A DNA stretch of 64,000 nucleotides, taken from Stachybotrys elegans. Lineage: Eukaryota; Ascomycota; Sordariomycetes; Hypocreales; Stachybotryaceae. The notes below the pieces were generated by a model. The model ran no database searches. It was not told the DNA's origin and saw only the letters and a list, made by a program, of their open reading frames with translations. The DNA lies in contig JAGPNK010000027.1 of the NCBI GenBank assembly GCA_020746835.1, positions 1 through 64,000 on the forward strand. Direction: 5' to 3'. Shown here in pieces: positions 29,247 to 48,779 of the stretch (positions are counted from its first letter, which is position 1; each line of letters begins with the position of its first letter). Position numbers and translations under genes: made by a program.

Positions 29247-30327
29247 TTACAGGAAGTGAAGAACCAGTCGCTTATATCCTGAGATGCTCTCAATCAATTC
29301 CGGAACACGAATAAACTCGTCAGGGCCATGCGCCACGAGAATCGAGCCCGGTCCATACAATACCCTCTTCCCGCAGAACTCATCCCTTAATCGAGGAACA
29401 TCAGTACCAAAGGCCACCGGAGCAGCCTCGAACCCCTCAATTTCCCATTCTAGCAGCGCCTCGGGATACTCGAAAACAAATTTGAGCTCAATGTCCGGGT
29501 GGTGCGAGACGACGTCGGCTACCTTGACCTTGATGCCAGGCAAATCGCACACCATTCGGACTTCGCAGAGGGCCTTGGCTGAGGGTGCGACAATGTTGTG
29601 CTTTTCTCCTCCTTCCAGCGTGCCAATATTGAAAGTTGAGGCACCAAGCAGGTCAGACGTTGGCCAGCTTACAGCGGCGAGGTCATTGAGCACTGCGAGC
29701 AAAGCCGACGTTGCACTTTTCCCGAGATGGGGGTATCCTGAGTGGCTGGGGCGGTCAGTATTTGTTCCGTAGCTTCACCTCACATGTTTCTTACCAAGCA
29801 TGGCCCTTTGCAATGAGCTCGAATGCAACTTGTCCTTTATGACCCTTTGCCAGTTTGCTCTCAGTCGGTTCGGCAAAGATACCAGACTCCCATGTTACGC
29901 CCATGGAATTGGCGGCGATCATCCCGTGGCCGCCGTTCTCTTCACCTACAACAAACAGTAACCCAACATCGCCCTCGCGAATCTTGGCTTCTGCTCGCAA
30001 CTCTTCAGCCGCCATGATCTGGGCCGCTAGTGGGCCAAGATCATCGGAAGAGCCTCTCCCACGAATCACATCACCGTCAATGGTGAGCGGGATGTGTGGT
30101 GGTACAGTATCCATGTGAGCAGTCAGGAGCACGCGCGTCTGGCGTGTGGATCCGAGGTATGCGTAAACATTGTGACGGCTCGATCCCGGTGCGATTGGAA
30201 TGCGTTCGACGGTGTAGCCCAATGATTGTAGGTGCTGCTCCAGGAATATGCCGATGTCGTGCTCCAACTCACTCGTCGACGCCATCGACATGAGCGACTG
30301 CAGAAGGCGAACCACTTGATGATCCAT
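29247..30327 (-). CDS. M20 family metallo-amidohydrolase (ArgE/DapE/ACY1-like)
   Basis: Two exons (30327-29795 and 29745-29247; intron 29746-29794) give 343 aa. Metal and catalytic motifs are in place: LLTAHMDTVP (metal His and catalytic Asp), RGRGSSDDLG (bridging Asp), FVVGEENGGHG (catalytic Glu plus metal Glu), AEPTES (metal Asp/Glu position), GHKGQVAFELIAKGHACHSGYPHLG spanning the intron (lid domain start), and a final His in ILVAHGPDEFI. Members remove acyl groups from amino acids or small peptides. No signal peptide, so cytosolic. Exact substrate not readable. Convergent with the lactonohydrolase gene. Confidence 0.9.
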
Positions 30328-31228: not shown

Positions 31229-31975
31229 TTACCAGGGGTACTCTTCGCCCTTGTAGGTGACGAACTTTCCAGAGTATTTGTCCCGAGTAGCATTGTCGAT
31301 GATTCCAATCATTCCCTTGACGCAGCCTTCGATCGTCTCGGGAGGTCCTGGCGCAAACTTCCAGTCCTGAGCCGCCGAGTATCCCATCGCGGTCTGGACC
31401 CAGCCCGGATGAAGCGCCACGGCCGTCAGTTTATCCTCCTGCAGATGCAGGGCCCTCGTAAGCCAGTTCAAGGCTGCCTTGCTCGGGCCATACGCGCCGC
31501 CCGGGAACTCTTGGTATGTAATGAAGCCGACCGTGGATGTGACCATGATGAGCTTTGGGCTCTCGGCCTTTTGCATGAGCGGCCACAGCGCCTGAAACAT
31601 CATGAGCGGCGCGATTGTGTTAATCTCGAAGCAAGCTCGCAGGTCCTCTGCTGTCGTCTCGACGGCGCGGTTGAGTTCCCCTGCGGCTCCCGCGTTGTTG
31701 ATGAGGACGTCGATGCGTGCAATGTTGAATGCGCTTCGGATCTTCTCAGGGGATTCGGCACGTGTGAAGTCGAGTTCGATAATGTCGAGGACACTGTTTT
31801 CGCCCAGTTCGACGGTCGATATTTCTGACTTGAGGACGTCGGCAGCCTGCTGGTTGCGGACAGTGGCAATGACAGTCGTACGGGGACGGCCGAGGTAGGC
31901 TTTGGCGAGGCCGAGACCGATGCCTCGGTTGGCACCGGTGATGACGTAGACGGTGTTTTCGGGAGTCTCTGACAT
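31229..31975 (-). CDS. Short-chain dehydrogenase, norsolorinic-acid-ketoreductase-like
   Basis: Intronless 248-aa classical SDR. The Rossmann motif TGANRGIG (residues 13-20) is followed by an arginine that favours NADPH (TVIATVRN). NNAG stabilises the central sheet. The catalytic Ser is in MVTSTVGF and the Tyr-x3-Lys in AYGPSKAALN. HPGWVQTAMG is typical of the NOR-1-like/C-factor-like fungal ketoreductases. It probably reduces a keto group of a small metabolite. It is the first member of the run of metabolite-type genes at 31-49 kb. Cytosolic by absence of targeting signals. Confidence 0.9.
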   Translation of the reverse strand: MSETPENTVYVITGANRGIGLGLAKAYLGRPRTTVIATVRNQQAADVLKSEISTVELGENSVLDIIELDFTRAESPEKIRSAFNIARIDVLINNAGAAGELNRAVETTAEDLRACFEINTIAPLMMFQALWPLMQKAESPKLIMVTSTVGFITYQEFPGGAYGPSKAALNWLTRALHLQEDKLTAVALHPGWVQTAMGYSAAQDWKFAPGPPETIEGCVKGMIGIIDNATRDKYSGKFVTYKGEEYPW

Positions 31976-32339
31976 TGCGTATACTTGAAGAAAGCTTTGG
32001 ACAGATTTGTTGTATAGCAGTGAGAGATTGAGAGTTCACTTACACCACGCTGCGCCCCTGGTGGTGATCACCGGGGGGGGAGGGGAGGGGTGACGCGCTG
32101 GAACATTTATAATCCGCTCAACAGGTCTGGGCATCGGCCTCTGCCCTTCCTTCGGCCCTTTCCTGAAGAGTAAATCAGCCCTTTGGGGCATCTAGACAGG
32201 TGGGATGTTTCGGTTTCATTGGTTATCCCGACTGACGGCCTTTCTGAATTTAGACTTTCAGAGATGGACTTCTATAATGATGAGTCGTTCGTACATCCTC
32301 TGATGCGGATCCAGATGTATTTGCCCAAAGTATTCCGAC
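31976..32339. other. Spacer with G tract
   Basis: About 360 bp including a run of G and purines near 32070-32090; promoter of the SDR gene, no gene recognised. Confidence 0.45.
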
Positions 32340-33939
32340 TTAAATGTGCTCGCACACTGTGTAAACCTTGCCCTCGGAATCACGGAGGGTGAATGATACC
32401 ATCCTCGACAGGGTGTTTTTTCTTTCTCCAACAATGTTCTCTGTACTCGGAGCCCGGAAGTTGCAGTCAAGGAGACGGATTCGTCGATCTTCAGGCGGAG
32501 GTTCATCTGTCCATGGGGATGGATTGCAGACCTGGTCAGTATGGTCAAGCATCAGGTCATGTTCCAGCTCAATGACCCGTCTTGCAATCAATAACAGCCG
32601 CTTTACATCCCAGAACCCCGCGCGAGTCGACATGTTCCTCCTTAGCAACGCCAAAGCTCTCATCCTTGTGCCAAAAGTCCGGCACTTGAGGATGACCCAA
32701 AAAACATGTATCAGGTATCCCGTTTCCAGCATGAAAATTCGCTCCCTGTGAGAGTTACATTGTCGATTCATAGCGCCGGACACTTCTTCCATGGCTGGCA
32801 ACATCATCTCGTACGAATCTGCGAATTTGTCGGATGCCATCTCACTGCTCTCAAAGGCTAGCAGAGCAGCGACTTTGCTGGCTTCTAAAGTAATTATAGA
32901 GTTGAGATAGTTGAGTCTCTGGTCCTCTGGTTGGGAGCCTCGCCCCCATGTACTCTTGATCAAACCACGGCATTGCTGAATTGTATCCAGGATTCTTTGC
33001 TGCGCATGCAAGAGCTGCCGGGGAGGAGTCCGAATATGGAGAGGAAGACGTCGAAACTCGCGTCCTTGTGAGACTAGCTGAAATGTACGGCCATATATCG
33101 TGTCCGTAACAAGTCTGGCATCTTGAGGAGTTCGTATTTCTTTTGCTGTGCACATATTCCACAGTTCCTCGGGGGCGTTGACATCGAGGCCAAACTTCAA
33201 GGCAAAAAGTGTTTGTCGCCGGTAGACTGGCGTTAGAAACTCGTGAACCCACTGGGGGAGTGAACTTGACGTATACAGGATGCGGAATGCAGCATAGAGA
33301 TGCATAAGTGCTTGCAGCTCACTTCCTTGTATCATCTCAATACAAAGAAAGAGAAGGCAGGTGACAAGGATCACCGAGATGTCCTTTGTTGCCATCAGCT
33401 GGCGGATGGCGACATTGTAGTGGCGAATGGCGAGAGAGGTGGCCTGGTTTTGCCCACATTGCACAAAGTCTTCGTAGAGCAAGCTCATTGCAATAATACT
33501 GTGCCGGATGCTTGGTTGCGAGTCTCCTAGCTGCAGAATGAGGTTGGTCCATAGGTAGGCTGAGAACTCGCCACAGATACGTGGAGCAACAGAGACATGG
33601 AAGAATTGAAGCGCGCGGGAGTTCGTAGGGTTGTAGAAGTCTCTGGATGGCAGCCTTGTCGGCAAGGATAATGGTTTCCATTGTAGGGACTGTTGATAGC
33701 CATCGCATTTGCGGCCAGTGCTGGTGCAGCGTTGACATTCGGGTTTCTCTTCGTCGCACTTGCTCCATATGTAAGCACAATTCAAGAATAGAGACTCAGC
33801 AGAAAGTATGAATATACCTTGACCTTGCGCGCCCTGCTCATGCGTTAGCGACGGGCCAGAGATAGTTTAAGACGCTAGGGTTCTCCTACTTGCATGTAGC
33901 ACAGCCTGTATGCACCCTTTGTATGCCCTTACGAGCCAT
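32340..33939 (-). CDS. Zn2Cys6 transcription factor with 16-nt microexon
   Basis: Three exons (33939-33890, 33833-33818, 33758-32340; introns 33834-33889 and 33759-33817) give 494 aa. The zinc cluster is C13, C16, C23, C30, C33, C40 (CX2CX6CX6CX2CX6C). The first two cysteines lie in exon 1, the basic ARKVK stretch in the 16-nt middle exon and the other four in exon 3. The spacing is perfect only with this splicing. The rest resembles fungal_trans_2-type regulators, with helices around FHVSVAPRICGEF and ALLAFESSEMASDKFADS. It is nuclear, and its position beside the SDR, AKR and P450 genes suggests a local regulator; targets are inferred only. Confidence 0.85.
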
Positions 33940-34276
33940 GAATCGGGCAAGATTATTTGATGTTACCCTTTCCTCTGGGAGTGCCAAACCGTTTTCCATT
34001 TGTCTTACGAGAAGAGTGATGCTCGCTCATCGGATTCCTCGGACTTTAACCATGCCACCTTGCTTACATATCCATTCGGATCCCTTTCGCTTGTGCAATT
34101 GTTGGTTATTCTAGACCTAAAGCAGCTTCGTTTTCCGAACTGACCAATAACTGCTCGTCTCCACTTTCCAAGAATAGCGAGGAGAAGACTCCTGAACAAT
34201 CCGATGCCAATGTAGCGCCATTTGCAGTCCTCGCCAGGTAGCCTTAGCCCTCATCAGATGGTTCTACTCATCGCCG
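33940..34276. other. Spacer, nothing recognised
   Basis: About 340 bp between two minus-strand genes. Confidence 0.45.
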
Positions 34277-35321
34277 TCACTGCATTACGACCTTGAAAAA
34301 TCCATTCCAATTGTCCAAAGCGGCATCTTGGCGCACAAGATCCCAGACCCCGTCAACCTCCTTTGCCAGGTGCTCGGGGAGTGGTCCTGTGCGGATAAAT
34401 CGGATGCTCTCCCGCAACTGGGCTGCGTCCCTCGCACCCAGAATAATGCCGTCGTCATGCTCACCCTTCAAGGCTGAGTGATACACGACCCAGCGATAAG
34501 CCAACTCGGCCCTTGGCATCCCTGCTTCGGTTGCAATCTCACCCCACCGGTCAAGCGCCTGAAGGAATGAGGGTTTGTTGAAGAGGAACTGGTAGATCTG
34601 CCCAAGTCGTGTGCTGGGGTTAAATCGTGAGACACCCTGCAGGAACTGCTCTTTGGTCTTGGTAAGCAAGCCTCCAGCAATCGGACTGTACGCATTATAC
34701 GCAATGTTGAGGCTGCGAAGCAACGGAAGAAGCTCGGTCTCGGGCAACCGGCCTATGGGACTGTACGAGCCCTGATAGACGCTTGGAAGCACACAATCAT
34801 GGCATTTGGCTGTCTCGTAAAACTCCTTCACGTCCTCGGGGGTGAAGTTTGAGAGACCCAGGCGCTCGAAGACGCCCTTTTTGTAGAGGACATCATATGC
34901 CTGGGCTTGTTCCAGAACCGGCGTTTGTTGGTCAGGTGCATGGATATACAGGACATCAACCTATGATATACGTGTCAGCATCATAGGTTTCTCGTTTCGT
35001 GGCACGCCATCTTACCTGATCGACCTTCAACAGTCGCAGGCTTTCTTCCCCTGCTGCGATGATGGCGGCCTTGTCTCGTCCCGGAGCAAAGCCACCCTTG
35101 AGCTTGGTATGAATGACGAACCGCTCCGGAGCTTTTTGATAAGCCAGCTCGGCCTCGCTTCCTTGATACAGCTCAGCGGTATCAAGCGTAGTGATGCCTT
35201 CATCGGCCAGGACTTGGAGCTGCTCTTGTGCTATCGCATGAGAATCAAGACCCATAGATTCCATGTTTTCTCCATAGCCAGCGGCCCCGAAGATGATGTT
35301 GATACCGTTGGAAGCAGGCAT
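34277..35321 (-). CDS. Aldo-keto reductase, aflatoxin-aldehyde-reductase (AKR7)-like
   Basis: Two exons (35321-35016 and 34960-34277; intron 34961-35015) encode 329 aa. The AKR tetrad is visible: Asp and Tyr in TLDTAELYQGSE, Lys in FVIHTKLKGG, His in VLYIHAPD across the intron. GVFERLGLSNFTPEDV and NAYSPIAGGLLTK are typical of the AKR7/YakC branch, whose best-known members reduce reactive aldehydes such as aflatoxin dialdehyde. The C-terminal cofactor segment is GIILGARDAAQLRES. It lies between a zinc-cluster regulator and a P450, fitting a role in a metabolite-modifying or detoxifying set. The substrate is not deducible. Confidence 0.9.
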
Positions 35322-36792
35322 GGTGACGACTGAAAAGTTTGAAAGGTTTAAAGGGTGTAGCTAGGTCTTAGGGTTTCTGTAGAGAGTGATGAGGACCTTG
35401 GGAGCAGGATCAGTTGCACATATTTATACCTGGCCATGCCTATCTGGAAGGTTCTGCGATTCCGACTTGCCGACTTTTCTCTCCAGAAAAGGCCGTTTCG
35501 GTATCTTGATTCATCATCAATGTCACAGACATTTGTTGATTCGAATGTTCATTGGTTGCCTCGCAATATTTGGCCCGTTTCGGAAGGCTAGCTGGGCATG
35601 ACATAAGTCTTTATATGACAAGGGCAGCCAGTTTAAGCCCCGTTCCATGTCGAGGGTAGGGCAGGCTCTATCTAAATGTGCTATCGGGCAAGTAGAGCTC
35701 CAATTATTGCCTTTAACCCGTTTACGTTTCCCGGTTGTTTCCGACATCTCTGGGACGTTGTGCCCCAGGGACATGTGTAAATCGGGGGAGATGGGTACTA
35801 TGTATTTTGTGCAACAAGCCGTTGTTGAGAGCATAAATACTCTTACTATCAGATAATAACTTGGGTTTGACCCTCATCGAAGTCAAGGTGATTCGTGGAA
35901 GCACGAGTGTAATGGTAATTGAACTTCTACAAGAAATGATATGGTCGAGTCAGTCATTGCAACACCGAGTCGACCACTGCATGTTGCTGACTTTGGTCCA
36001 CATAGAGCAGCTTCACGGCCATCATAATTGGATCCAATGAGCTGCATCCAGGCGCATATTGCAGGCTTCCAACGATCAGCAGCGCCATGGCTTAATGAGC
36101 TGATATTGCTTCTCTTGGCTGCTATGTCCCACACAAATTCAACAACACGTCATGCGCCACCATGCATGTGGCTTAATCCCATTCATCTTTTTGGCCGTCG
36201 GATACTCATGCATGTGCCAAGTGTCATCTACGGATTTGATATCGTCTTTATCGTTAGAAGAGGCCTCCTCAAAATTGCTGGTCTGTGTCCCATTAGGGCA
36301 CACGAACAGAAAATCCCACATGCTCTTGCATCTGAGAGAAAAGTGGCTGGCTGTTGGAGGGTTACATCTAGCTGCAATATGCCAACAACGGCCTGCCGAT
36401 CATCCAACTGTAACCCACTCAAATGTGATAGGCTTACCAACCAGTCAGCCAATGGAGTGATTTTGCCTGCCGCGGCTACCTTCACTTCGTGATGTGGCTT
36501 TCGGCTAAATATCTTCATGTATCTGTCTGCATAACACATGCGTTATCACGACACAGAGAGCGACGATGCAACCCATTACGTCTCCGCACTCGTATCTCCA
36601 TGCATGATATGGCGCACTGGAAGCAGGGGCGCTCTGGTTCTTCAGAGATAAATGGCGTATTCTGCAGCGCATGTCCAGCATGCATAAATACCTCGGCACG
36701 GTCTCTTTCAGAGCGATCCTTTCTCTCATCCATAACCCTTCATTTTTTTAACTTTTTATTTTTTACTGTACGCAACCAACAAGGTGCGAATA
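35322..36792. other. Spacer with a duplicated sequence copy
   Basis: About 1.47 kb between divergent genes. No intact gene is recognised. It contains copy A of a diverged 63-bp repeat (36260-36322), described separately. Confidence 0.45.
36260..36322 (-). repeat. Copy A of a dispersed 63-bp repeat (WDFxFVCPNG frame)
   Basis: This stretch matches 45147-45209 at 52 of 63 positions without gaps; 9 of the 11 differences are transitions. On the minus strand both copies read MWDF(L/I)FVCPNG followed by Q-x-S and FEEA in an open frame. This may be a relic of a duplicated gene exon or of a mobile element; I know no family with this motif. Confidence 0.6.
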
Positions 36793-38513
36793 ATGGCCCT
36801 CTTATCAATCAACGTCTTCCAACACCTCTGGCCTTTTGTGATCAGTGGGGTGTCTTCCTGGTTCATCGTGGCCAAATTTCTCTCCTGGTATCGACTTCGA
36901 CATATACCGGGTCCTTGGCTCGCAGGCTTTTCCTACCTTTGGATGCTCATCAAGATCTCTGGCGGCAGTCAACAGAACACCGAGTACCGCAGACTGAGCA
37001 CCCGCTACGGCTCATTGGTTCGAATCGCGCCAAACTATGTGGCGACTTCTGACCCAGATCTGCTGCGTGAAATCACCGGCGCTCGCAGCACATCTAAGCG
37101 CGATGACTGGTACAAACGCAGCCGCATAGATCCCCATACCGAAATCATGATCAGCACGACGGACACAGCAAAACACGACACCCTCAAGGCCAAGAGTGCG
37201 GCTGGCTACTCTGGGCGAGAAGCTACTAATATGGAGGAGATCATCAGCAGTCAAGTCGATTCCTACGTTAGACTTATTCGCGAGAAATACGTCTCCAAAG
37301 GAAGCATGGTGCGGCCCCTTGACTTTGCTCTCACAACCTCCTTCTTCACTCTTGATGTCATCTCCGCGGTGGCCTTTGGAAAGCCTTTTGGATTCCTCGA
37401 AACGAACGAAGATTTGTACGATCTCATCGCTACAATTCGCGATAGATGGCGCATTGCTGCGCTTGCCAGTGATATTCCTTGGATCGGCTCAATTGTGTAT
37501 ACGCCCGTCTTTCTAAAGCTTTTTGCTCCTCAGTATGGCGACAAAGCTGGCGTCGGCCGCATGTTGACGTTTGTCTACCTTTGATCTAATTTTGCTCTAT
37601 TCTTCTGCTAACATAGTGTTAGTGTGACACGAGATTCGGTCGATGCACGATATCGCGATGGTGACAAAGACCAGAACGACATGATGGTAAGCAAACGAAC
37701 ATTATATATCGGGGACTCTGATAACACTCAGTCTTCTAGGCGTCCTGGATGCGCCATGGCATGACAAGAGAGGAAGCTCGGAGCGAGGGTCCTTTCCTTG
37801 TCCTGGCAGGTTCTGACACTGTGGCCTCTGTGGTGAGAGGTACCATGCTCAATATACTGAGCAACGGCCCTCTATACGCAAAGCTCAAGCAGGTTATCGC
37901 AACATGTGTCAGTGGAGGCCAGGTTTCCAACCCTATCACGCTTGAAGAGGCGCGCAGAATCCCATACTTGCAGGTGTGTCATAACGTCAACTGATGCTGC
38001 CGAAAAGACTGACAGAATAGCAGGCTCTTATATATGAAGGGATCCGATATAGATCTCCAACAAACGCCCTTTTCTTCAAAACTTCACCAGATGGTGGACT
38101 CGACATCCAGGGCAAGCATATCCCCGCTGGTACTGCCATCGGAATGAACATGGCCTCGCTACTGGCCTCCAAAGACCTCTTTGGAGAAGACGCCGATGTC
38201 TTCCGGCCAGAGCGCTTCTTAGAGGTAAGCGATAGTGACCGAATCGAGATGGAGCGCAATGTCGAGCTTGTTTTTGGCCATGGACGCTGGATGTGCTCCG
38301 GCAAAACCGTTGCGTTCATGGAACTCAACAAGATTTTCTTCGAGGTATGGTCTCCTTCCTCCAAGATTTCAGGTACCTAATATGCAGCACTCCAAACAGT
38401 TACTCCGAAATTTTGACTTCCAGCTGCTGAACCCCGAGAAGCCTTGGGACTCTGCGAGCTACTGGGTGCCTGTTGAGAGCAATATGTGGATGAAGGTCAC
38501 AGAGGCAAACTGA
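36793..38513 (+). CDS. Cytochrome P450, pisatin-demethylase/benzoate-hydroxylase-like
   Basis: Five exons (36793-37568, 37617-37686, 37740-37973, 38024-38344, 38388-38513) give 508 aa. A single N-terminal membrane helix precedes the proline hinge HIPGPW. P450 motifs follow: helix C region SGREATNMEE, I-helix oxygen-binding LAGSDTVAS, ExxR in YEGIRYR, the PERF-like FRPERFLE, and heme loop FGHGRWMCSGK with the cysteine ligand. The overall type resembles fungal pisatin demethylase and related P450s acting on aromatic or isoflavonoid-like compounds. It sits in the ER membrane and needs a P450 reductase. The acceptor of intron 3 could be 3 nt earlier, adding one Gln. Confidence 0.92.
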
Positions 38514-39471
38514 AGCATTGGCCAATTTGGGAAGAAATGGATATCTAGCATGAGTTCTTTTACTTCTGGCCCAAAACCAAGTATTAAATGATGCAACGCG
38601 ATTGTGTATGTGAACACCGTAGCATCGCCATGGACGCGAGCTCCGCACTGTTAAGACAAGTGCTTCAGTCATCTTGTATATACAGTCCGAGGTGGAAGCA
38701 GTAGAGAGCAAATCAACAGTAGAGGTAGGCGCCTAGTGCCCCTGCAACCAATGCAGTTGTAAACAGTAGAGAGGAATAAAAACGAGGCCATTGTCAGGCT
38801 GCCCGCACAGGGTAGCCGACTGGACAGTCCACACAAAGTCATATTCTATACAAGAGACAAACACTAGGACTTGGCTTTCGTCCGACCTCAGCTTGTGCCC
38901 ATTTGCCGAAGCTAAATGCCGAGATGCCGACAGCAGGTCACGAGGTTGCAATTCCTACACATCCAATGCTACGGCAAGCTTGGCGGTGGTGTGCGGTAAT
39001 CGCTGCAGGTATGCAGTGCGACGTCCGAAGCCATTATCCTATCTGCAGGTGACCAACTTAGGTCAGCTTCACTGCGCAGTGGAACGGTTGCGTCGGGATA
39101 GGGTGTACTGAAAAGGGCACCAGTTCGTTCGCTTGTGAGCTTTTACCAGGATAGGATATGTTGAACCTGTCCCTTGCCCAGTGGTGGCTCACTGTCGCAA
39201 GTGCATTGCTTGTGTAGGAGGGGTGTCACATCCCCACTCACGGTCCGACGCCGTATCGGCGAATCGGGCAACCGACATCCCCCGAAGGGTATCGAGGCGG
39301 GCGGGGAAACAACGAATACGAACACATGCAAGTGGCGGTTATTGTGTGACAGAAAAGAGGAGGATATGGTATATTAGCTACGCCCTTCTACCTCGGAGGA
39401 GGTGGGGGACGGAAAGACCAGGAGCTTTGAAACACACATCAAATTATATCAATAGATTCATAACCGTACCG
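38514..39471. other. Spacer, nothing recognised
   Basis: About 960 bp between two same-strand P450 genes. An open frame extends upstream of the second P450 to 39181 but looks non-protein-like (Arg/Ser-rich) and lacks a membrane helix. Confidence 0.45.
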
Positions 39472-41143
39472 ATGCTTCATATACTTGCCATTCAATTTGC
39501 CGTGGTATCTGTGGGGATCATCGGTTACTATCTTCGACGGGAGAAGAAGACCAACCTCCCACTTCCACCAGGCCCACGACCTCTGCCAATCATTGGCAAC
39601 TACAAGGACCTCCCACCTCCCGGAGCGCTCGAGTTTCAGCACTGGTTAAAGTTCAAGGAACAATATGGTCCAGTGATCTCGCTGACTGTCTTCGGACAGC
39701 CAATGATCATCCTTTACGACAAGGAAGCCATTGTTGAGCTCCTGGATAAACAGTCCTTGAAGACTTCGAATAGACCCTCGCAGCCTTTCGGTAATCTCAT
39801 GTGCGGTTTTGGCCAATTCTTACCCTCGCTTCAGTATGGCGATGCCTTCAAGAAGCAACGAAAGATTGTTCATCAACAGATGGGGACCAAGGCCCTTGCT
39901 TCTCAGTTTGACGAGGTCCAAGACGTGGAGTCGGCCAGATTGCTGCTGAGAATTCTAAAGCACCCAGAAGACTTGAGAGAACACATCAAGACGTAGGTAG
40001 TTATGCCGCGATTCTCGCCAACACTGGCTGACAGTGTGCAGTGAGGCCAGTGCCATCATCCTCAAGGCCACATATGGATACGCCGTTGAGCCTCATGGGA
40101 CAGATCCCCTTGTCTCTCTTGTGGATTATATGATGGAGTGCCTGGCCAGTACATTTGTGCCGCTATCATGGCTTCCCGACATCTTTCCGTTTCTCATCCA
40201 TCTTCCTGAGGGCTTCCCCGGCGCCCAGTCTTTCCAAGAGGTGGCGAGAAGGTGCAAAGAGGTTATAAATGCCGTCGTTGATGCACCATACTCGCTGGTG
40301 AAGAATCAGCTATCGGAAAATAGCAACCGCCCCTCCTTTGTGGCATCGCTTATTCAAGAGTACACCAAGGAGGACGGAACAATCGATGCAGAGGACGAAC
40401 TCGCCATCAAGCGGTCCGCAGGCATCATGTACGGGGCAGCTGCTGATACCACTGTCACTACGATCAGCAGCATGATCCTCGCAATGCTATTATATCCCGA
40501 GACGCAAAGGAAAGCACAAAAGGAAATCGATGCGGTACTTGGGGTGGGAGTAATGCCCCTCTTGGCGGACCGAGATCGTCTGCCATATGTCGATGCCCTA
40601 ATCAAGGAATGCTGGAGATGGTATTCGGTAGTGCCCATTGGTACAACTCACGTGGCCACTGAAGAGCTGATTTACAACAACTATCGCATCCCCAACGGCT
40701 CGTACTTGCTGATGATGAACGATTGGCTCACGCATGACCCCGAAGTCCATCCCAACCCCGAAGCCTTTGAGCCCGAGAGATTTCTCACTCCAAGGAACGA
40801 GCCTGATCCAACCACTGCTGTGTTTGGTCGTGGCCGCCGGATCTGCCCCGGGAGATTCATGGCGGAAGACAGCGTGTTTCTCACTGTCTCTAGGATCCTG
40901 GCCGTTTTCAACATCAACAAGAAGAAGGATGCGCTTGGGAGGGAGGTTAAGTTTGAGGTTGACCGAACACCGGGGCTCATTAGTCGGCTCGGAGAATTCC
41001 CGTATGAGATTTCGCCAAGAAGTGAGAAGCATGCGGAGCTAATTCGCTCCATTGAGACGACTCATCCTTGGGAGAAGGGTGATGCGCCTCTGCTTGAAAG
41101 CCGGGTGCATCAGCTAGGAGAGAAGCTCATACACAGGGGTTGA
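39472..41143 (+). CDS. Cytochrome P450, O-methylsterigmatocystin-oxidoreductase-like
   Basis: Two exons (39472-39992 and 40042-41143; intron of 49 bp) give 540 aa. The N-terminal membrane helix (ILAIQFAVVSVGIIGYY) is followed by the hinge LPLPPGPRPLPIIGN. The WxxxR-equivalent is in KKQRKIVHQQMG, the I-helix is GAAADTTVTT, ExxR is KECWRW, the PERF-type motif is FEPERFL, and the heme loop is FGRGRRICPGR. This layout is that of the large fungal P450 group annotated as O-methylsterigmatocystin oxidoreductase-like. ER membrane. It is clearly not a paralogue of the preceding P450, which differs in type and intron pattern. The C-terminal tail after SPRSEKHAEL is longer than usual. Confidence 0.92.
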
Positions 41144-41680
41144 GGAAGGCGTTCTCGCATGGGTTTTTATTCTCATTTTTCTTTCTTTTAGTTCCCATTT
41201 CTTCTTTCCTTGATCTTGTATCAAGTGCTTGTGCAAACTCACCACATCTAATACATCCCGCTTCGTATGTGTGTGGAAATTGCACCAAATTTGGGACAAG
41301 TTGCATTTCTGCCATATGAAGAGTCTCATTTTAGTAATACTCGCTCACTGGTAGCGCCTTCTGTGAATTATCAGTATTCCTGGTTCGTCTTGACTCCATC
41401 ACCAAGATTTGACCCCCAAAGGCGGCTCTCTAGATCATTACTTGTAGCTTGGGGTTGGCAAGGTCGCGGCAGACTTTTGACGTGTAGTTCACATCCAATA
41501 CCGATTCCTAAGGAGCTGTCCTCGAGTTAGGATGAACAGCGCGAAAAGTTGCTCGATTGGACAATGGCAATATCATTCGCGAGTTCTGGGATGCGAAGAG
41601 TGTTAATTCCCTATTTGTCATTCCTGCATCAGGACTAAAGCACCCTACCTTAAATGGTGTAGTCAGAGCCCTCGAAACAC
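41144..41680. other. Spacer, possible 3' part of a lipocalin-like relic
   Basis: About 540 bp downstream of the P450 gene. A minus-strand frame at about 41508-41660 (FKVGCFSPDAGMTNRELTLF) could be the broken continuation of the lipocalin-like sequence upstream, but I cannot join them with confidence. Confidence 0.35.
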
Positions 41681-41913
41681 TCACTGGGCTGTTAGTAACT
41701 GTGCATAGATACGTTTGCACCTGAGTGAAGGTGGAAGCGTCCCTGCAACTTGATACCAGCGGCCGATGTACAATTCCAGCACAAACGCCAGATCGGCAAT
41801 GAGATGCAAGCACTGTCCTAATGGGACGGGATGGCGGAGGGCGCCGAGGGAGGGCAAGTAGACGCCGCACATACCAACCCCACGGTAAACGCCACAGCTA
41901 TTCGAGACCGCAT
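41681..41913 (-). pseudogene. Lipocalin-like secreted protein remnant
   Basis: On the minus strand an ATG at 41913 opens a signal-peptide-like frame (MRSRIAVAFTVGLVCAAS followed by Pro/Ser/Ala-rich residues) that stops after about 31 codons. In the overlapping frame the sequence continues as DLAFVLELYIGRWYQVAGTL and then CKRIYAQLL before a stop. The GxWY pattern GRWYQVAG followed by a Cys-Lys-x-Ile-Tyr-Ala block is the entrance of lipocalin/calycin beta barrels. A plausible donor GTGAGT follows directly, so part could be a spliced gene, but the break between signal frame and barrel frame suggests a pseudogene or a sequence error. Confidence 0.4.
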
Positions 41914-42917
41914 TCTTGTTGACAAATATGTGAGTTGCTAGCCCAGATCCAGGCTAGCAGACCGAACTTGTTGAAACAGGTTAAGGATAATCGGCATGAG
42001 AGCAAGGCAAATCCGAGGCGAAGTCTTGATAAAGTTTTTGGCTCACACGAAGCTCGTGGTTCACCAGTAGCTTGGTCCAGGCGATGGACGCGTGGATGCT
42101 TGGAATACGGCGTGGGAAGTCATCCAGGTTCATCTGTCCCTGGCTTGTAGCAAGGGATTGCTAGTAGGAATTACAGATGGGCTAGGGAAACTGAACAAAT
42201 GCCGACGAATTTTCAACTATCGATGACGTCTAGCCGCAAATTAAGACGCCCAATCCCCACCTGTTTGCTGGTGCAGCTCGGAGGAGGGGCGCTTCGTCTC
42301 CGGGGAGATGCAGCATTCCGTGGCCTAGCTGATCCGCCACGTGCTTGGCTAGTCCAAAGTTCTAACAAGGAAGTTGCTGGTTGCTCCGGGGGCTTGAGGG
42401 TCGAGGCGCTTCGATTGGGTTCGAAACGCCTCTTTCACATTTTGGCTGTGTGGCTCTGTAAATGTTGGCTGACCTCGGATCGCCGTCTTGCTTCTTGGGC
42501 AGACTCCCCATTGCAGGGATTTGTAACAGAGGGTTGTGTCGTTCTTACTTTGATATGGCTGGTGAGATATCGGCATCATGTGGATTTGGTGTTGAGGACT
42601 GTAGCACATAACTTGTAGTGCTATGTTTCAGCAACGATTGTGATAACTCCCTAGGAACACACGAGCTTGATTGGAAACCGCTTGAAGGTGTATGGCTGCA
42701 ATCGATTCCTGAAATGCACTCGGGTAGTCTGATTGGCCACTCGTTCTGTGTGATACAGATGCTAAGCGCCAATCACCCACGAGATCTGTAGTCCAAAGTC
42801 TATTCCATGTGCTGCCGGTTGAACGGATAGGGCCGAAGATGCACTCTCAGACGGGATGCCTAGCCTCGATCCCCACGCTCTGGGAGAGATCGGCAGCTGA
42901 AGCGTGCTTGCAAAGGC
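41914..42917. other. Spacer, nothing recognised
   Basis: About 1 kb; the frame at 42199-42618 has no recognisable motif. Confidence 0.4.
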
Positions 42918-42924
42918 TATATAA
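42918..42924 (+). promoter_or_regulatory. TATA box of the small secreted protein gene
   Basis: TATATAA, 115 bp upstream of the ATG at 43039. Confidence 0.6.
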
Positions 42925-43038
42925 TGCAGGCTGCTTCTCACAACATCTGGTTGGATTCTCATTCTCATCAAGTTAAGATTCAGCTCATCATATCTAATTG
43001 CAACAATCCAATTCTTCTCAATCTACAACACAGCTACA

Positions 43039-43344
43039 ATGAAGGCCTCTCTTGCTACCTGCGCTGCGACCTTGGTCATCCCTTTCGTCCTCGCAGCCCC
43101 TACCAATGGCGGAGATGCACCCGCAGTCGAAGCCCGCGCCCCTGTCGTCTCTGAAGAGCGCTCAGAACCCACATTCGTCGTCCGAGATGCTGGCACGAAA
43201 GGTTACGATGGTTACGATGGAGAATGCAGCGACGAAGAAAAAAACCCTAAGGGCTATGGCAAAGGCTCAGGACGCGGCGGCCTATACTGCACCCGTGGCG
43301 GCCGAGGAGGCAGAGGAGGCGGCCGCGGTGGTTCCCGTCGTTAG
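43039..43344 (+). CDS. Small secreted Gly/Arg-rich protein (RGG tail)
   Basis: Single-exon 101-aa protein with a clear signal peptide (about residues 1-20, ending FVLAAP). A short propeptide-like segment contains VEAR and SEER, possible processing sites. The mature part has a YDGYDG repeat, only two cysteines (about residues 63 and 84), and a C-terminus made of RGG/GRGG repeats ending in SRR. Strong TATA box and A/C-rich leader suggest a transcribed gene. I do not recognise a family. Effector-like size and secretion are seen, but cationic RGG tails are usually found in nucleic-acid-binding proteins, which makes a secreted one unusual. Role unknown. Confidence 0.7.
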   Translation: MKASLATCAATLVIPFVLAAPTNGGDAPAVEARAPVVSEERSEPTFVVRDAGTKGYDGYDGECSDEEKNPKGYGKGSGRGGLYCTRGGRGGRGGGRGGSRR

Positions 43345-43704
43345 ACAGCGCCCTTTCCTCTATGCTAAGGAGTTTGTGCATCTGCGGATATGTTATGTAC
43401 GATAAGGAAGATCACAATGCGGAGCCTGCATTGGGCTCAACTGGGGGCACACGGAACCATGGACTCATAAGGCATATCCTGTACCCAGTCTTGGGGTTTA
43501 TGTTGATGGAAAAATAACGGAGGGGCAGCGTTCAATTACGAGTGGCCATGGATGATGTTGTCATGTTTAGTTTGGTGCTATATGATAGGAAGTTGGCGTT
43601 TCACACCTCAGTATTTATTGCAGTTATGTCGGTGCAACGGCATTTCACCACCGCGCGGCAAATTGGATGCATGCCAGGTCCCTCGTCGCATATACCAGGC
43701 GAAG
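43345..43704. other. Convergent spacer
   Basis: About 360 bp between the convergent small secreted protein and thioesterase-like genes; nothing recognised. Confidence 0.45.
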
Positions 43705-44777
43705 CTACAGAGACGAAGTCCCTGCCGCTCGCGTCCGCATCTTCCTCTGAGCTTCCACCACCACCACCAACTGGTGCGCCACGCAAACCAGTCCCATCTG
43801 CTCGTCACACAGCGTAATATCCAAGTCCATCCTCCCCGCCTCCATCATTCTACTCTCAATCCTCGTAAACACCCACCGCAGCCCTTGCTCCGGCAGCCGC
43901 CTCTTGAACTCGATATCAAGCGTGACCGTCATGTTGAACACGCCGGCCTTTGTGATGTCACTCATCTTGGGCCTCAGCACGCACACTTGACCGGGATGCT
44001 CTGCGGCCCACGCCTCGGTGATGCGATGGGTTTTGTGTGCGTCATACAGCCCCGTGTTGCGTAGCAGCGTGTCCGACATGGATGGGATCATGTCACTCAT
44101 CAATGCCATACAAGTTGCGTCCATGGTCTGCCCACCGTGCCAATGGTTCCAAAAGTCAATCTTGCCGTCATCAGGGAATCCGCCGCGCGGCTGCAGCCAT
44201 ATGAGCTGCTCTGAAGCAGCCAATACCTCGCCGGCCATGCACACGGGAAGCCAGTTGGGTTCCGACCTAGCATTCTCGACGAGTTCAAAGTCTGGGATCG
44301 GTGCGGGAGGTGGGTGCAGCTTCCAGGCGGTAGCATGGGACGGTCCCAAGGATTTTGCAAAGTCGGTCATGGTGGCGAGGGCGAGCACTCGAAGTTGATT
44401 CTTTTGTGACAGCTGCACCTGGAATACGCTGATGCCGCCACCTGTTTTGATGGGCGCAATATTGATGGTGCTGGCAGTGCTCTCACACCCACGGACGAAC
44501 TGAAGGTGCAGCTTTAGTACATCTGGCTGGTTGAGGGCCACTAACGACGGCTCTTGTTGGACGTGAGTGGTGATGGCGTGGTGGATGACGGCCGCGACGT
44601 AGCCACCGTGGAGGGCTGATTGAATCAAGAGTTGTCAGCCACCAAGACTCATTGTCTTGCGCTCAGAGCTTTCTGATCCTTACTCGCGCCAATGCTCCAT
44701 TTCGCCGGGGAGTCGGCTATGTACGTGCCGGTCGCGGTCTTGCAAAGGTTGATGTTGTCTTGCAGCTTCGTGGCCAT
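43705..44777 (-). CDS. Thioesterase-like hot-dog protein (4HBT_3 type)
   Basis: Two exons (44777-44684 and 44615-43705; intron of 68 bp) give 334 aa. The N-terminus carries TATGTYIADSPAKWSIGATLHGGYVAAVIHHA, split by the intron: the start of the acyl-CoA-thioesterase-like double hot-dog fold (TesB/4HBT_3) common in fungal metabolite loci. A second hot-dog half is suggested by GGQTMDATCMALMSDMIPS and VFNMTVTLDIEFKRRL. Such proteins hydrolyse acyl-CoA or acyl thioesters, or may release or cyclise polyketide-like intermediates; no catalytic residues are certain here. No targeting signal. Its presence among P450, reductase and exporter genes suggests acyl-thioester chemistry in the same pathway, which is inference. 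Confidence 0.85.
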
Positions 44778-45402
44778 GGCTTGTATAGGATCAAGATGCT
44801 ATGTCGTGGGCTTATATCGATCAGGACGCTCGGGCAAACACTTATTCTCGCCTTTTAGGGATTCTGTCTGCTATTTGGGACGAGGCTAAGATGGTGACGG
44901 TGAGAGGATCATGGCTTCGCCGTCGCTTATGGAAATGCACAACACAGTCAGCATAAGACAACATCCCCGCTGTTTTGAAGTCCCGATACTGTTTAAGGAA
45001 TCTCCCGGCTCAGCACTGCACACGTGACGCCAATCAGCCCTGCGCCAGTCCGGAGTTCATCGATGATTGAAGCCATCGCGGTAGTTTTCAACTTTGGGCA
45101 CATAGAGAACCATAGACTTATAAGGCGTATGCTATCATCATCAGAGGGGGCTTCCTCGAAGTCGCTGATCTGTATCCCATTGGGGCACACGAAGATGAAA
45201 TCCCACATGTTACCGAGGTTCTATTACAAGGGGCGGACTGGGAGCAACCAGGGCAGGTCCCGATACCACTATGAAGGCTCAAGACTACTAACAAGAGGGC
45301 ATTACCTAATAGTAGAGGCTGGAGCCCAACACTCTGGCGGTCATTCATTGCAATCCGAGCCAATGAATCTTCTACTGGCCCATTTCCAGCTGAATCCTCC
45401 TC
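44778..45402. other. Spacer with repeat copy B
   Basis: About 625 bp between two minus-strand genes. It contains copy B of the dispersed 63-bp repeat (45147-45209); otherwise no gene is recognised. Confidence 0.45.
45147..45209 (-). repeat. Copy B of the dispersed 63-bp repeat (WDFxFVCPNG frame)
   Basis: Counterpart of 36260-36322 (52 of 63 identical, same orientation). On the minus strand the open frame runs on for about 70 codons (45208-44993: MWDFIFVCPNG, then FEEAPSDDDSIRLIS), longer than in copy A, so this may be the better preserved copy. The two copies bracket the P450, secreted-protein and thioesterase genes. Confidence 0.6.
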
Positions 45403-46997
45403 CTAAAACTTCCCAAGCATATCCTGCACACGCTGCATCATCTCGTCTTGATACACCTGTTCTCGAATAATGAGGGGATTTCGAGGGTCAGCGGACTTTT
45501 CTAAATAAGCCTGGTCACTCAGCACCGGGCGCCCATTCCTCAAAAAGTCAACTGCCAGATGATACAGGGACAAACTATCCGAGATGAGTATTGTGCCTTT
45601 TACTTGTAGATGTCGGTCGGGGGGCTGCCCACGGAACTTGTTCCACGATGCATACCACGTTTGCAATGCTTGTTCCAGCGCGGAAAGGTCGACTGGCAGG
45701 ATGGACGTCTGCGCTTCTAGAAGCAGTGAACTCACGGCTAAGATGAGAAGATTCATGCCAAATGTCGTAACGCTTGGCTCAGGGGGCCTTGGCCCACCAT
45801 CAAACCCCTAACGGAGGACAAGAAGCAGCTGGAAGGATCCTGCGCTGGGAGCGCGGCCCACAGAGAAGCAGAGCAGGCGGTCCAGCTGGCGTCATCACAT
45901 GGAAAAGATGCCCTGGTATCTGTGGGAGCGAGAAGCGGTTTGCTGCCACAGAGAATCGCCTGGTAGCAGTCGACCGCGTAGACACCCCACAAGACTCTCT
46001 TCCTCGACTCTTTGAGAATCCATGGCTTCCACGAGTGCGCATCTCGCGTCGCCCGTGTGCACTCTCCGTGAATCTTGAGGAGTCCCTCATGCCGTATCGC
46101 CGCCACGAGGAGGGGGTGTATTAGCCGCGTTGCAGCCCGCTCGGCGCTGCCCCCATTCGCCATGACCGCAAACTGCAGCAGCACCAAAGCCTGCAACTCC
46201 TCAAAGGTCGGCGGCGACTTGTCGGAGCGGAGGCAGCATTTGGCGAGCGATGACGGGAGTGATCCATAGATGAGCCTGGCATCTGACGTCGACGATGGGT
46301 CACTGTCAAAGCCAGCGCCGATGAAGCATATCGCCCGAACAAGGACTGGCGACGACGTGGCCAGGCAGAATGTCGGTATGTGTAAAAGAGGCAGAAGGTG
46401 GTGAAAATTTAGAAAGAATAGTCGTGCAAACGTCTCAAGTCGATGCACCGGGATGGTCTCCGGGCCGTCCAACTTCAGGACATAATCGGCGGGAAGACGG
46501 AAGGCATCGGGGCATACAAATCCTTCAATTGACGTAGCAGGTGGCCATGTACCTATTGGCGGGCCCAGAGAGCTCTGCGCCAGGTCGGCAGTGCTGAGCA
46601 GCGATGTCGTGTCCTCCAGATTCCACGTCCAAGAGCTCATGTCAATCATGCTTTCGATGTCGACGAGCTGGGATAGAAAGTCGATCTCGCTGGCTGACGG
46701 CGGCGCCAGAAATGATAGGTCCGCCGTCTGTTCGTATACCGGGCCTGGGCCAGCATACAGTTGCGGCTGGTCTTGGATGCTAGTCTCCGGTGATAGAACC
46801 GGAGTGGCCGTGGTGCTGACGTCTGTTGTCGGCGGCGGCGTCGGTGGCTTTCTGGGCTGACTTCTTCTCGCCCTCTTCTTGCGCCCTGCCTGGATGCATG
46901 GCGACTGGGTTTGCAGACATCGTGAGCAAGAGGAGCCCCTCTGCTTGAGATCGCATCGGACCTTGGATCTAGCACACTCGACACAGCTCCTGTTCAT
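45403..46997 (-). CDS. Zn2Cys6 transcription factor with apparent frameshift
   Basis: Zinc-cluster regulator divergent from an MFS exporter. The N-terminus has C5, C8, C15, C24, C27 and C34 (CX2CX6CX8CX2CX6C), then basic KKRARRSQPRK and a Ser/Pro-rich linker. The middle region contains LETFARLFFLNFHHLLPLLHIPTF, the typical start of the fungal-specific regulatory domain, then ALVLLQFAVMANG and KRVLWGVYAVDCYQAILCG. The frame stops at 45753, but an overlapping frame (to 45403) continues naturally as SVTTFGMNLLILAVSSLL. One extra C in the five-C run (minus strand, 45786-45782) would join them into 531 aa. It is either a sequence error or a real truncation that removes about 120 C-terminal residues. 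It probably controls the adjacent exporter. Confidence 0.82.
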
Positions 46998-47372
46998 TTC
47001 CGCGGTTGCATGAGACGATGGGAGGGAGTCGGCAACATCGGGATTATGGGACTCTGGCGAAAGGGATTAACGATGGACGCGTCAGGAACAATATTCCCGA
47101 TACTAAATCCCGCAGCCCAGTCCATAGCATAGTGGAGCACCATCAACCTGTTTCGCTCACCATAAGCCTGTCTCCGGGATTTCCCACAAATTCCCGAAGA
47201 CCCGAAATCCCGGATCACCATGACACCTCATTCTATATAAGACGCACTCTTGCCAGATGGTTGCATTCTCTTTCTCTTGTCAGGCTCTCATTAACCTATT
47301 GCATAAACTCTAAATTCATCCAACAGAATCCAATACTTTAGCTTTAACCCAGACACTAAGAAAGAAATCGCC
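46998..47372. promoter_or_regulatory. Divergent promoter of the Zn2Cys6 regulator and MFS exporter
   Basis: 375 bp between divergent start codons. TATATAA at 47234-47240 is 133 bp before the MFS start. Several CCGGG/CCCGG-type triplets (around 47170-47215) could serve as zinc-cluster half-sites; this is suggestive only. Confidence 0.5.
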
Positions 47373-48779
47373 ATGTCTGAAATCCCTTCCACCGAAACAA
47401 GCACAGGCGACAAGTGCACGTCGCCGGCACGATCATGGTTTGATCGAGTCTGCTTGCTGCAGAAACGTGGCGACCCTACGACACATTCTGCGAGGGAGAA
47501 GCATGCCATTGTTGCCATCGTTACCCTGGCTGCCTTCACAGCTCCCTTTGCCTCCTGCATCCTCTTCCCATCCTTCACGTCCCTCGTGGACCACTTCCAC
47601 ACCACCCAGACCAAGGTTGCCCTCACCACAACCGTCTTCCTTCTGGGTCTAGCCGTTGCGCCGCTCTGGTGGAGTACGCTCAGCCACGAGTACGGCCGCC
47701 GACCGGTGCTCGTGTCCAGTTTCCTCCTTTCGACGGTGGCCGTTGTCGTGTGCGCCGTGTCCGACTCACTGCCCCTCATGACCGTCTTCCGACTCATCGA
47801 AGCGCTAGGCTGTTCCTCCGCGCAGAGTGTGGGCGCCGGTATCATTAGCGACATCTACATCTCGACCGAGCGTGGATCGGCCCTGGGGTGGTTCTACCTG
47901 GGCACTCTGATCGGACCTCTAATCGCCCCCATCATCGGAGGTGCCCTGCAAGTCTGGCTCGGCTGGCGTGCAAACTTGTACTTTATGGCCATTTTCACCT
48001 TTAGCGCTGCCATGCTCATCATGCTGTGTCTGCCAGAGACAGTGGTGAAAGCTTCCACCGATGGTAAGCTGGAGAAGGGACCATGGTATGAAACAGTCAA
48101 GCGTGACTTGCTGGCTCCTCTGCCGAAGCTTCAGCTTCTTTTGGTGCCGTCTATTGTTCTGACAATCGCCTACGTGAGCATCTGCTTCGCCAGTCTCTAC
48201 TGCTTCAACACAACGCTTCCCTACGCATACTCGGCGGCGCCCTACAACTTCTCCGCCATTGAGATTGGTCTCTGCTACATCAGTAACTGTCTTGGCTACG
48301 CCATTGGGAGTGTTGTTGGTGGTAAGCTGAGCGATGCCAAGCTACGCCAGTACCAGCTCACCCACGATGGAGAGATCCGTCCTGTTGAGAGAATCAAGAC
48401 GGTGTGGTACGGCGTCGGTCTCGTCCCAGCAGGACTAGTCATCTATGGCTGGCTGGTGGAGGAAAAGGTCTTTTGGATCGCCCCCCTTGTTGGTGCTTTC
48501 CTTTTTGGACTGGGATTGATGCTCACCACCTCCACCATCATGCCGTTCCTCGTCGACGTCAGGCCAGGGCTCGGTGCTTCCGTCGTGGCTGATCTGAACT
48601 TGGTTCGTAACATCTTGGCTGCTATTGGCACTGTTGTGTCACCCATCGCGGCAGCGAATATTGGCTTCGGGTGGTGGATGACCATTCTGGCATTGCTTTG
48701 CACTTTGGCTATTGGCTTCATTGTCATAGTTATCTGCAGAAATTCGAGTGAGAAGCCTGAAGCAGGACCTGCAGTTTAA
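47373..48779 (+). CDS. MFS multidrug-type exporter (DHA1 family)
   Basis: Intronless 468-aa major facilitator with about 12 hydrophobic segments. Family marks of the drug:H+ antiporter-1 group: the loop 2-3 motif (SHEYGRRPVLV), motif B-like RLIEALGCSSAQSVGAGIISDIY, and motif C in helix 5 (LGTLIGPLIAPIIGGAL, a G-x8-G-x3-GPxxG type stretch). A central cytosolic loop follows LPETVV. It resembles QDR/FLR-type exporters in the plasma membrane. Divergent orientation with a zinc-cluster regulator is the classic arrangement for regulator-controlled efflux. It probably exports the product or toxic substrate handled by the neighbouring enzymes (inferred). Confidence 0.93.
   Translation: MSEIPSTETSTGDKCTSPARSWFDRVCLLQKRGDPTTHSAREKHAIVAIVTLAAFTAPFASCILFPSFTSLVDHFHTTQTKVALTTTVFLLGLAVAPLWWSTLSHEYGRRPVLVSSFLLSTVAVVVCAVSDSLPLMTVFRLIEALGCSSAQSVGAGIISDIYISTERGSALGWFYLGTLIGPLIAPIIGGALQVWLGWRANLYFMAIFTFSAAMLIMLCLPETVVKASTDGKLEKGPWYETVKRDLLAPLPKLQLLLVPSIVLTIAYVSICFASLYCFNTTLPYAYSAAPYNFSAIEIGLCYISNCLGYAIGSVVGGKLSDAKLRQYQLTHDGEIRPVERIKTVWYGVGLVPAGLVIYGWLVEEKVFWIAPLVGAFLFGLGLMLTTSTIMPFLVDVRPGLGASVVADLNLVRNILAAIGTVVSPIAAANIGFGWWMTILALLCTLAIGFIVIVICRNSSEKPEAGPAV

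What the first reader, a model, noticed from the sequence alone, without database searches (positions are those of the whole stretch)
31229..48779. Backbone-free cluster of tailoring enzymes, two zinc-cluster regulators and an exporter
Within 17.6 kb lie a NOR-1-like ketoreductase, an AKR7-like aldehyde reductase, two unrelated P450s, a 4HBT_3 thioesterase-like protein, a small secreted RGG-rich protein, two Zn2Cys6 regulators and a DHA1 exporter divergent from one regulator. This is the make-up of a specialised-metabolism or detoxification cluster, but no PKS, NRPS, terpene cyclase, DMATS or RiPP precursor of a known class is visible. It may modify an imported or host-derived aromatic compound, or cooperate with a distant backbone gene. 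The secreted small protein could also be a precursor or self-protection component.
Basis: partly seen in the sequence, partly recalled or inferred. Interest (0 to 1): 0.75.

Follow-up and report, generated by a model that had tools for sequence, protein, structure and literature searches.

The report
Two neighbouring fungal detoxification-type gene groups
In the mould Stachybotrys elegans, nine neighbouring genes - enzymes that modify small molecules, two gene switches, an export pump and a small secreted protein - sit without any enzyme that builds a molecule from scratch; they look like two adjacent detoxification or modification groups rather than a new kind of pathway.

Summary
The nine genes are there and read as intact. 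Three of my models (both P450s, the thioesterase) match database proteins of Stachybotrys elegans on a contig of the same length as this one, which names the organism. No scaffold-building enzyme was found in the window (Pfam on the nine proteins and 54 further ORFs; genome searches for KS, C, UstYa and terpene synthase domains). The nearest ketosynthase on the contig is about 137 kb away. So "backbone-free" holds as far as tested. The single-cluster claim is weaker: for three genes tested, relatives in other fungi never lie on a contig of the same length (0 of 16, 0 of 5, 0 of 6 shared organisms), and their nearest named relatives are in different orders. Promoter motifs split the locus: CGGGAWT/TCCCGATAC at the thioesterase and regulator/exporter promoters, CCGTWTCGG at the reductase and second-P450 promoters. 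Best reading: two adjacent modules, (SDR, ZnA, AKR7, two P450s) and (thioesterase, ZnB, DHA1 exporter), of xenobiotic-modification type; the secreted protein is an orphan with no sign of being a RiPP precursor. Ordinary for a filamentous fungus. An incidental find, a retroposon-like repeat of perhaps 2,500 copies, may be more worth following.

The parts
31229..31975 (-).
   Evidence: motifs by eye
32340..33999 (-). ZnA, Zn2Cys6 regulator, exons 32340-33758, 33818-33833, 33890-33999; CX2CX6CX6CX2CX6C
   Evidence: Zn_clus 5e-10
34277..35321 (-). AKR7-like aldo-keto reductase, exons 34277-34960 and 35016-35321
35493..35583 (.). two CCGTTTCGG sites (35493, 35575) on the AKR side of the AKR/P450A divergent promoter, the only two in 264 kb
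36217..36320 (.). copy of a high-copy dispersed repeat in the AKR/P450A promoter (85% to one copy)
36793..38514 (+). P450A, BcABA1/pisatin-demethylase-like; exons 36793-37568, 37617 (37623 fits the database record)-37686, 37740-37973, 38024-38344, 38400-38514
39251..39259 (.). CCGTATCGG site in the P450B promoter
39472..41143 (+). P450B, OrdA/CYP620-like, exons 39472-39992 and 40042-41143
43039..43344 (+). small secreted Gly/Arg-rich protein, 101 aa, signal peptide by eye, two Cys in the mature part; no second match in the genome at E <= 0.1
43705..44777 (-). 4HBT_3/4HBT_3C TesB-like acyl-CoA thioesterase, exons 43705-44615 and 44684-44777; D206, T263, Q313 conserved
44981..45266 (.). two TCCCGATAC sites in the thioesterase promoter (44981, 45258)
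45137..45207 (.). copy of the high-copy dispersed repeat in the thioesterase promoter
45403..46997 (-). ZnB, Zn2Cys6 regulator with Fungal_trans domain, exons 45403-45737 and 45806-46997 (junction inferred)
46998..47372 (.). ZnB/MFS divergent promoter with six CGGGAWT sites (47039-47206) and one TCCCGATAC (47095)
47373..48779 (+). DHA1-type MFS transporter (QDR/Bcr-CflA-like), 468 aa

Best explanation
The locus is two adjacent, separately regulated modules of small-molecule modification and efflux in Stachybotrys elegans. The left module (SDR, ZnA, AKR7-like reductase, P450A, P450B) would oxidise a lipophilic aromatic or terpenoid compound, probably taken up from a plant or a parasitised fungus, and then reduce the resulting aldehydes or ketones. 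The right module (TesB-like thioesterase, ZnB, DHA1 exporter) would be controlled by ZnB binding CGGGAWT-type half-sites in its own divergent promoter and related TCCCGATAC sites in the thioesterase promoter, releasing an acid from a CoA ester and pumping a compound out. Shown: the genes, their families, conserved residues of the thioesterase, no recognised backbone enzyme in the window, and the motif distribution. Inferred: substrates, regulator-site pairing, expression and the detoxification role. The secreted protein is not assigned to either module.
For: Families and motifs. No KS, C, UstYa or terpene synthase match in the window and no other backbone family in 54 further ORFs. Many of P450A's listed relatives are named BcABA1 or pisatin demethylase. 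P450B's include CYP620C3 of Metarhizium (51%); PMC5985579 (passages) places Cyp620 in a group it labels xenobiotic metabolism, and PMC5869400 (passages) reports reduced virulence on wheat heads for a CYP620B1 deletion among five P450 mutants and suspects breakdown of plant metabolites. Motif split: TCCCGATAC 3 in 64 kb, all in right-module promoters (5 in 264 kb); CGGGAWT reaches 6 in 375 bp at the ZnB/MFS promoter, no other stretch of the 264 kb holding more than 2; CCGTWTCGG 3 in 64 kb, all in left-module promoters, 6 in 264 kb. Different histories: of the first 20 rows with an organism name after the self hit, 17 are Hypocreales for P450B, 1 for P450A and 1 for the thioesterase (counted by me; orders recalled).
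Against: No expression, binding or metabolite data. The motifs were picked after looking: 5 of 20 shuffled 264-kb contigs had at least one CGG-bearing degenerate 7-mer six times in 375 bp somewhere, and in the real contig a second such motif (CCCCSGG at 244,495) also reached six; 11 of 40 shuffled windows had a 7-mer as dense as AATCCCG. They persuade only because they fall in a promoter set by gene layout. CGGGAWT also occurs at six places between 180 and 212 kb around the distant PKS. Linkage was tested for three of nine genes and only through contig lengths in listings. Family-level 'xenobiotic' labels are annotation, and relatives of P450B also carry names of biosynthetic enzymes (OrdA, CLM2).
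Confidence: 0.5

Rival explanations
1. Satellite tailoring cluster: the enzymes finish a product whose scaffold is made by a backbone enzyme elsewhere in the genome, for example the PKS at about 185 kb on the same contig.
For: The genome is rich in KS and C domains (99 and 57 matches). P450A's best match outside itself in its own genome is on the same contig at 206,027 (41%), some 20 kb from that KS. CGGGAWT occurs at six places between 180 and 212 kb, two of them 157 bases apart at 184,214 and 184,371. OrdA/CLM2-type P450s act in biosynthesis (recalled; CLM2 also in PMC5869400, passages).
Against: No CCGTWTCGG or TCCCGATAC between 180 and 212 kb, and six CGGGAWT in 32 kb is close to the contig average (58 in 264 kb). 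41% identity means an old split. KS match counts include fragments of one gene. The 64-264 kb part was not annotated.
Confidence: 0.22
2. Chance neighbourhood: accessory genes of common families next to each other, without joint function.
For: 0 of 16, 0 of 5 and 0 of 6 shared organisms keep pairs of the three tested genes on a contig of the same length; P450 pairing is not beyond chance.
Against: Divergent ZnB/MFS pair, two regulators in 17.6 kb, and motif arrays limited to neighbouring promoters.
Confidence: 0.2
3. Terpenoid pathway like the abscisic acid cluster of Botrytis, which also looked backbone-free (two P450s, an SDR and an ORF without similarities, bcaba3).
For: P450A falls among proteins named BcABA1, has five exons as bcaba1 has, and a 509-aa Botrytis protein is 44% identical.
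Against: bcaba3 is a 440-aa intronless ORF in two of three strains (passages); no unassigned ORF of that size lies between the nine genes, though a gene split by introns would be missed. P450B is OrdA-like. bcaba4 has an intron, this SDR none.
Confidence: 0.05
4. The secreted protein is a ribosomal peptide precursor processed by the neighbouring enzymes.
For: Signal peptide and Gly/Tyr/Arg-rich mature part by eye; no second match in the genome.
Against: No repeated cores and no internal KR/RR sites by eye; no UstYa match on contig C20.
Confidence: 0.03

Closest known systems
Fungal xenobiotic/phytoalexin detoxification P450s (CYP57A1 pisatin demethylase; CYP620)
   Same: P450A relatives bear the pisatin demethylase name, a P450B relative the CYP620C3 name
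   Different: Only family-level kinship; substrate unknown; these P450s are not shown to act as a set
Abscisic acid cluster of Botrytis cinerea (bcaba1-4)
   Same: Two P450s and an SDR without a recognised backbone enzyme; P450A is BcABA1-like with five exons
   Different: No bcaba3-sized ORF; P450B OrdA-like; extra AKR, regulators, exporter
Canonical fungal biosynthetic gene cluster
   Same: Tailoring enzymes, Zn2Cys6 regulators, MFS exporter
   Different: No core enzyme found; linkage of three tested genes not seen elsewhere
TesB-type acyl-CoA thioesterase (4HBT_3/4HBT_3C)
   Same: Both domains; D206 in 78 of 78, T263 as T or S in 70 of 78, Q313 in 71 of 78 aligned sequences, this one included
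   Different: Substrate unknown; no solved relative by sequence at E <= 0.001

Membership tests
Fungal biosynthetic gene cluster | core (backbone) enzyme in the cluster | tested here: not met
   DMATS, type III PKS and NRPS-like genes were tested only through the Pfam scans of the nine proteins and 54 further window ORFs
Fungal biosynthetic gene cluster | several tailoring enzymes with a regulator | tested here: met
Fungal biosynthetic gene cluster | neighbours stay together in other genomes | tested here: not met
Fungal biosynthetic gene cluster | co-expression | not testable with these tools
   no transcript data held
Xenobiotic detoxification module | phase-I type oxidases and reductases | tested here: met
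Xenobiotic detoxification module | DHA1-type efflux pump beside a regulator | tested here: met
Xenobiotic detoxification module | induction by, and tolerance to, a toxic compound | not testable with these tools
   needs culture work
Abscisic acid cluster | bcaba3-type ORF of about 440 aa | tested here: not met
   ORF list against the size; homology not tested for lack of the sequence
Abscisic acid cluster | BcABA1-type P450 | tested here: inconclusive
   similarity group and names only, 44% to a 509-aa Botrytis protein
Fungal RiPP (dikaritin type) | UstYa oxidase nearby | tested here: not met
   none of 28 matches on C20
Fungal RiPP (dikaritin type) | secreted precursor with repeated dibasic-flanked cores | tested here: not met
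   sequence, by eye

The most novel reading that the evidence does not exclude
A self-contained pathway whose scaffold is made by an enzyme not yet recognised as a backbone enzyme, or from a host-derived acyl-CoA that the thioesterase releases, with two zinc-cluster regulators dividing the early (P450/reductase) and late (release/export) steps.
Probability: 0.07. Interest if true: 0.55.

Novelty: new member of a known kind. Interest (0 to 1): 0.25.

Why it matters
It suggests that a nine-gene tailoring locus read as one cluster may be two neighbouring modules with separate regulators. It gives testable operator sites (CGGGAWT for ZnB; CCGTWTCGG, perhaps for ZnA). If the compound it handles is a defence molecule of a plant or of a parasitised fungus, it would be one piece of how a mycoparasite survives its prey.

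Tried and rejected
Backbone search by whole-genome families: KS and Condensation, UstYa, terpene synthase C and Pfam on 54 window ORFs, aligned only to pass them in one call: nothing inside the window. A relative of the secreted protein in its own genome: none at E <= 0.1 besides itself. P450A's paralogue at 206 kb as a duplicated cluster: only 41% identical; its surroundings were fetched but scanned for motifs and repeats only. PDB relatives of the thioesterase: none. Papers on S. elegans with mycobiome, Arabidopsis and genome: none; on Stachybotrys clusters, backbone-free clusters and short interspersed elements: listings only, and nothing in them that describes this locus or the repeat. A search for 9- to 11-mers shared by promoters gave mostly chance-like pairs, some due to the repeat. 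Synteny could not be tested properly: no other fungal genome can be searched here. All three protein searches went to the thioesterase, P450B and P450A, so SDR, AKR, ZnA, ZnB, MFS and the secreted protein were not searched in other fungi. On checking I found that one search had overlooked two organisms (Colletotrichum cereale, Diaporthe ilicicola); one search is the corrected comparison and gives the same answer.

Full report
What is there. The window is contig C20, bases 1-64000, of a 43.4-Mb genome in 61 contigs. Three spliced proteins match database records of Stachybotrys elegans on a contig of 264,130 bases, the length of C20: the thioesterase (334 aa, 100%), P450B (540 aa, 100%) and P450A (502 of 504 aligned positions identical, the record lacking two residues because of a different intron acceptor). 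Pfam gives SDR, Zn_clus (ZnA), aldo-keto reductase, two P450s, 4HBT_3 plus 4HBT_3C, Fungal_trans (ZnB) and MFS_1; the secreted protein has no family.

Detail of the parts. The AKR is nearest to aflatoxin B1 aldehyde reductases in the PDB. The SDR is nearest to short-chain/carbonyl reductases and sniffer. The transporter is nearest to QDR2 and multidrug resistance protein D in the PDB and to Bcr/CflA in NCBIfam, below that family's cut-off. P450A's named relatives are called BcABA1, pisatin demethylase or just P450 (best full-length 58%, Thozetella; 60% over 76% of the query in Paramyrothecium); P450B's O-methylsterigmatocystin oxidoreductase, CLM2 or CYP620C3 (59% in Paramyrothecium, 61% in an unnamed metagenome protein). 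Both P450s keep ExxR, PERF and the heme cysteine by eye. Among 78 thioesterase sequences of at least 300 aa (this one included, out of 115 found), D206 is kept in 78, T263 is T in 61 or S in 9, and Q313 is kept in 71; that these are the TesB triad is recalled.

No backbone enzyme. Whole-genome searches gave 99 KS, 57 C-domain, 28 UstYa and 13 terpene synthase matches, some of them fragments of one gene. On C20 there is one KS match, at 185,659, and none of the others. Fifty-four further window ORFs, chosen from 131 of at least 120 aa, matched 15 Pfam families, none a backbone type: carbohydrate enzymes, peptidases, HET, dienelactone hydrolase, aldo-keto reductase and the like. Beyond the window only those four kinds were sought.

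One cluster or two. The tables give organism and contig length. Leaving S. elegans aside, 16 organisms are in both the thioesterase and P450A lists, 5 in thioesterase and P450B, 6 in P450A and P450B; none shares a contig length, whereas S. elegans itself does in all three. The test is weak: searches list at most 120 hits, each row stands for a cluster of sequences, homologues may not be orthologues, and some names cover different isolates (Neoarthrinium moseri, by its locus tags). The nearest named relatives also differ: of the first 20 rows with an organism name after the self hit, 17 are Hypocreales for P450B, 1 for P450A, 1 for the thioesterase (my count from the tables; orders recalled). 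No other Stachybotrys appears among the named rows shown.

Promoter motifs. TCCCGATAC occurs three times in 64 kb, twice in the thioesterase promoter and once in the ZnB/MFS promoter, and five times in 264 kb. CGGGAWT occurs 9 times in 64 kb and 58 times in 264 kb; six start between 47039 and 47206 in the ZnB/MFS promoter, and no other 375-bp stretch of the contig holds more than two. CCGTWTCGG occurs three times in 64 kb, in the AKR (two) and P450B (one) promoters, and six times in 264 kb. Controls: 5 of 20 shuffled contigs had at least one CGG-bearing degenerate 7-mer six times in 375 bp, the real contig has a second such motif at 244,495, and 11 of 40 shuffled windows had a 7-mer as dense as AATCCCG. 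So such arrays arise by chance somewhere, but seldom in a promoter named beforehand (about 700 such stretches in the contig). I take this as suggestive evidence that ZnB governs the exporter, itself and the thioesterase, and that the left genes answer to something else, perhaps ZnA.

Background rate. Merging searches gives 114 P450 loci; 7 have another within 6 kb, against a mean of 3.5 in random placement, so pairing alone proves nothing.

Function. S. elegans parasitises Rhizoctonia solani, in which ethyl 2-phenylacetate, 3-nitro-4-hydroxybenzoic acid and diketopiperazines rise during the attack (PMC4413796, abstract and one section). Such compounds, or plant phytoalexins, are possible substrates; this is conjecture. 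The Botrytis ABA cluster is a precedent for two P450s and an SDR beside an ORF without similarities (PMC4227169, abstract and passages; that this ORF is the core enzyme is recalled), and PMC11109268 (passages) describes biosynthetic enzymes without detectable domains; no unassigned ORF of bcaba3 size lies among the nine genes.

Verdict.

Noticed in passing
window 36217-36320 and 45137-45207; other copies on C20; L001-L020: A dispersed, retroposon-like repeat of about 100-200 nt with one fixed end (TGTGGGATTTCC) and a ragged other end; five of the 20 fetched copies (the best-scoring ones) show likely target-site duplications of 13-15 nt, no chance control run. Sixteen matches on C20, which I count as 15 copies, 77 to 97% identical to one copy; that density would mean about 2,500 in the genome if C20 is typical. 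No Rfam match in four copies. Two copies sit in promoters of this locus.
   Followed up: partly
window 22116-23492: Two ORFs that look by eye like a secreted vanadium-haloperoxidase/PAP2-type protein; no such Pfam family was listed at E <= 0.001.
   Followed up: no
window, flanks of the locus: Among 54 scanned ORFs outside the nine genes, AA9, GH11, HET, aldo-keto reductase and dienelactone hydrolase match two ORFs each, alpha-amylase, M20 and M28 peptidases one each (two ORFs can be exons of one gene). The M20 gene (29247-30327, placed by eye) abuts the SDR and might belong to the left module; a CCGNNNCGG site lies at 30577, upstream of it.
   Followed up: no
C20:206027-207061 and C20:185659-186399: P450A's best match outside itself in its own genome (41%) lies about 20 kb from the only ketosynthase match on the contig.
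   Followed up: no
C20:240093-240358: Dense array of CCTACTA-like heptamers.
   Followed up: no
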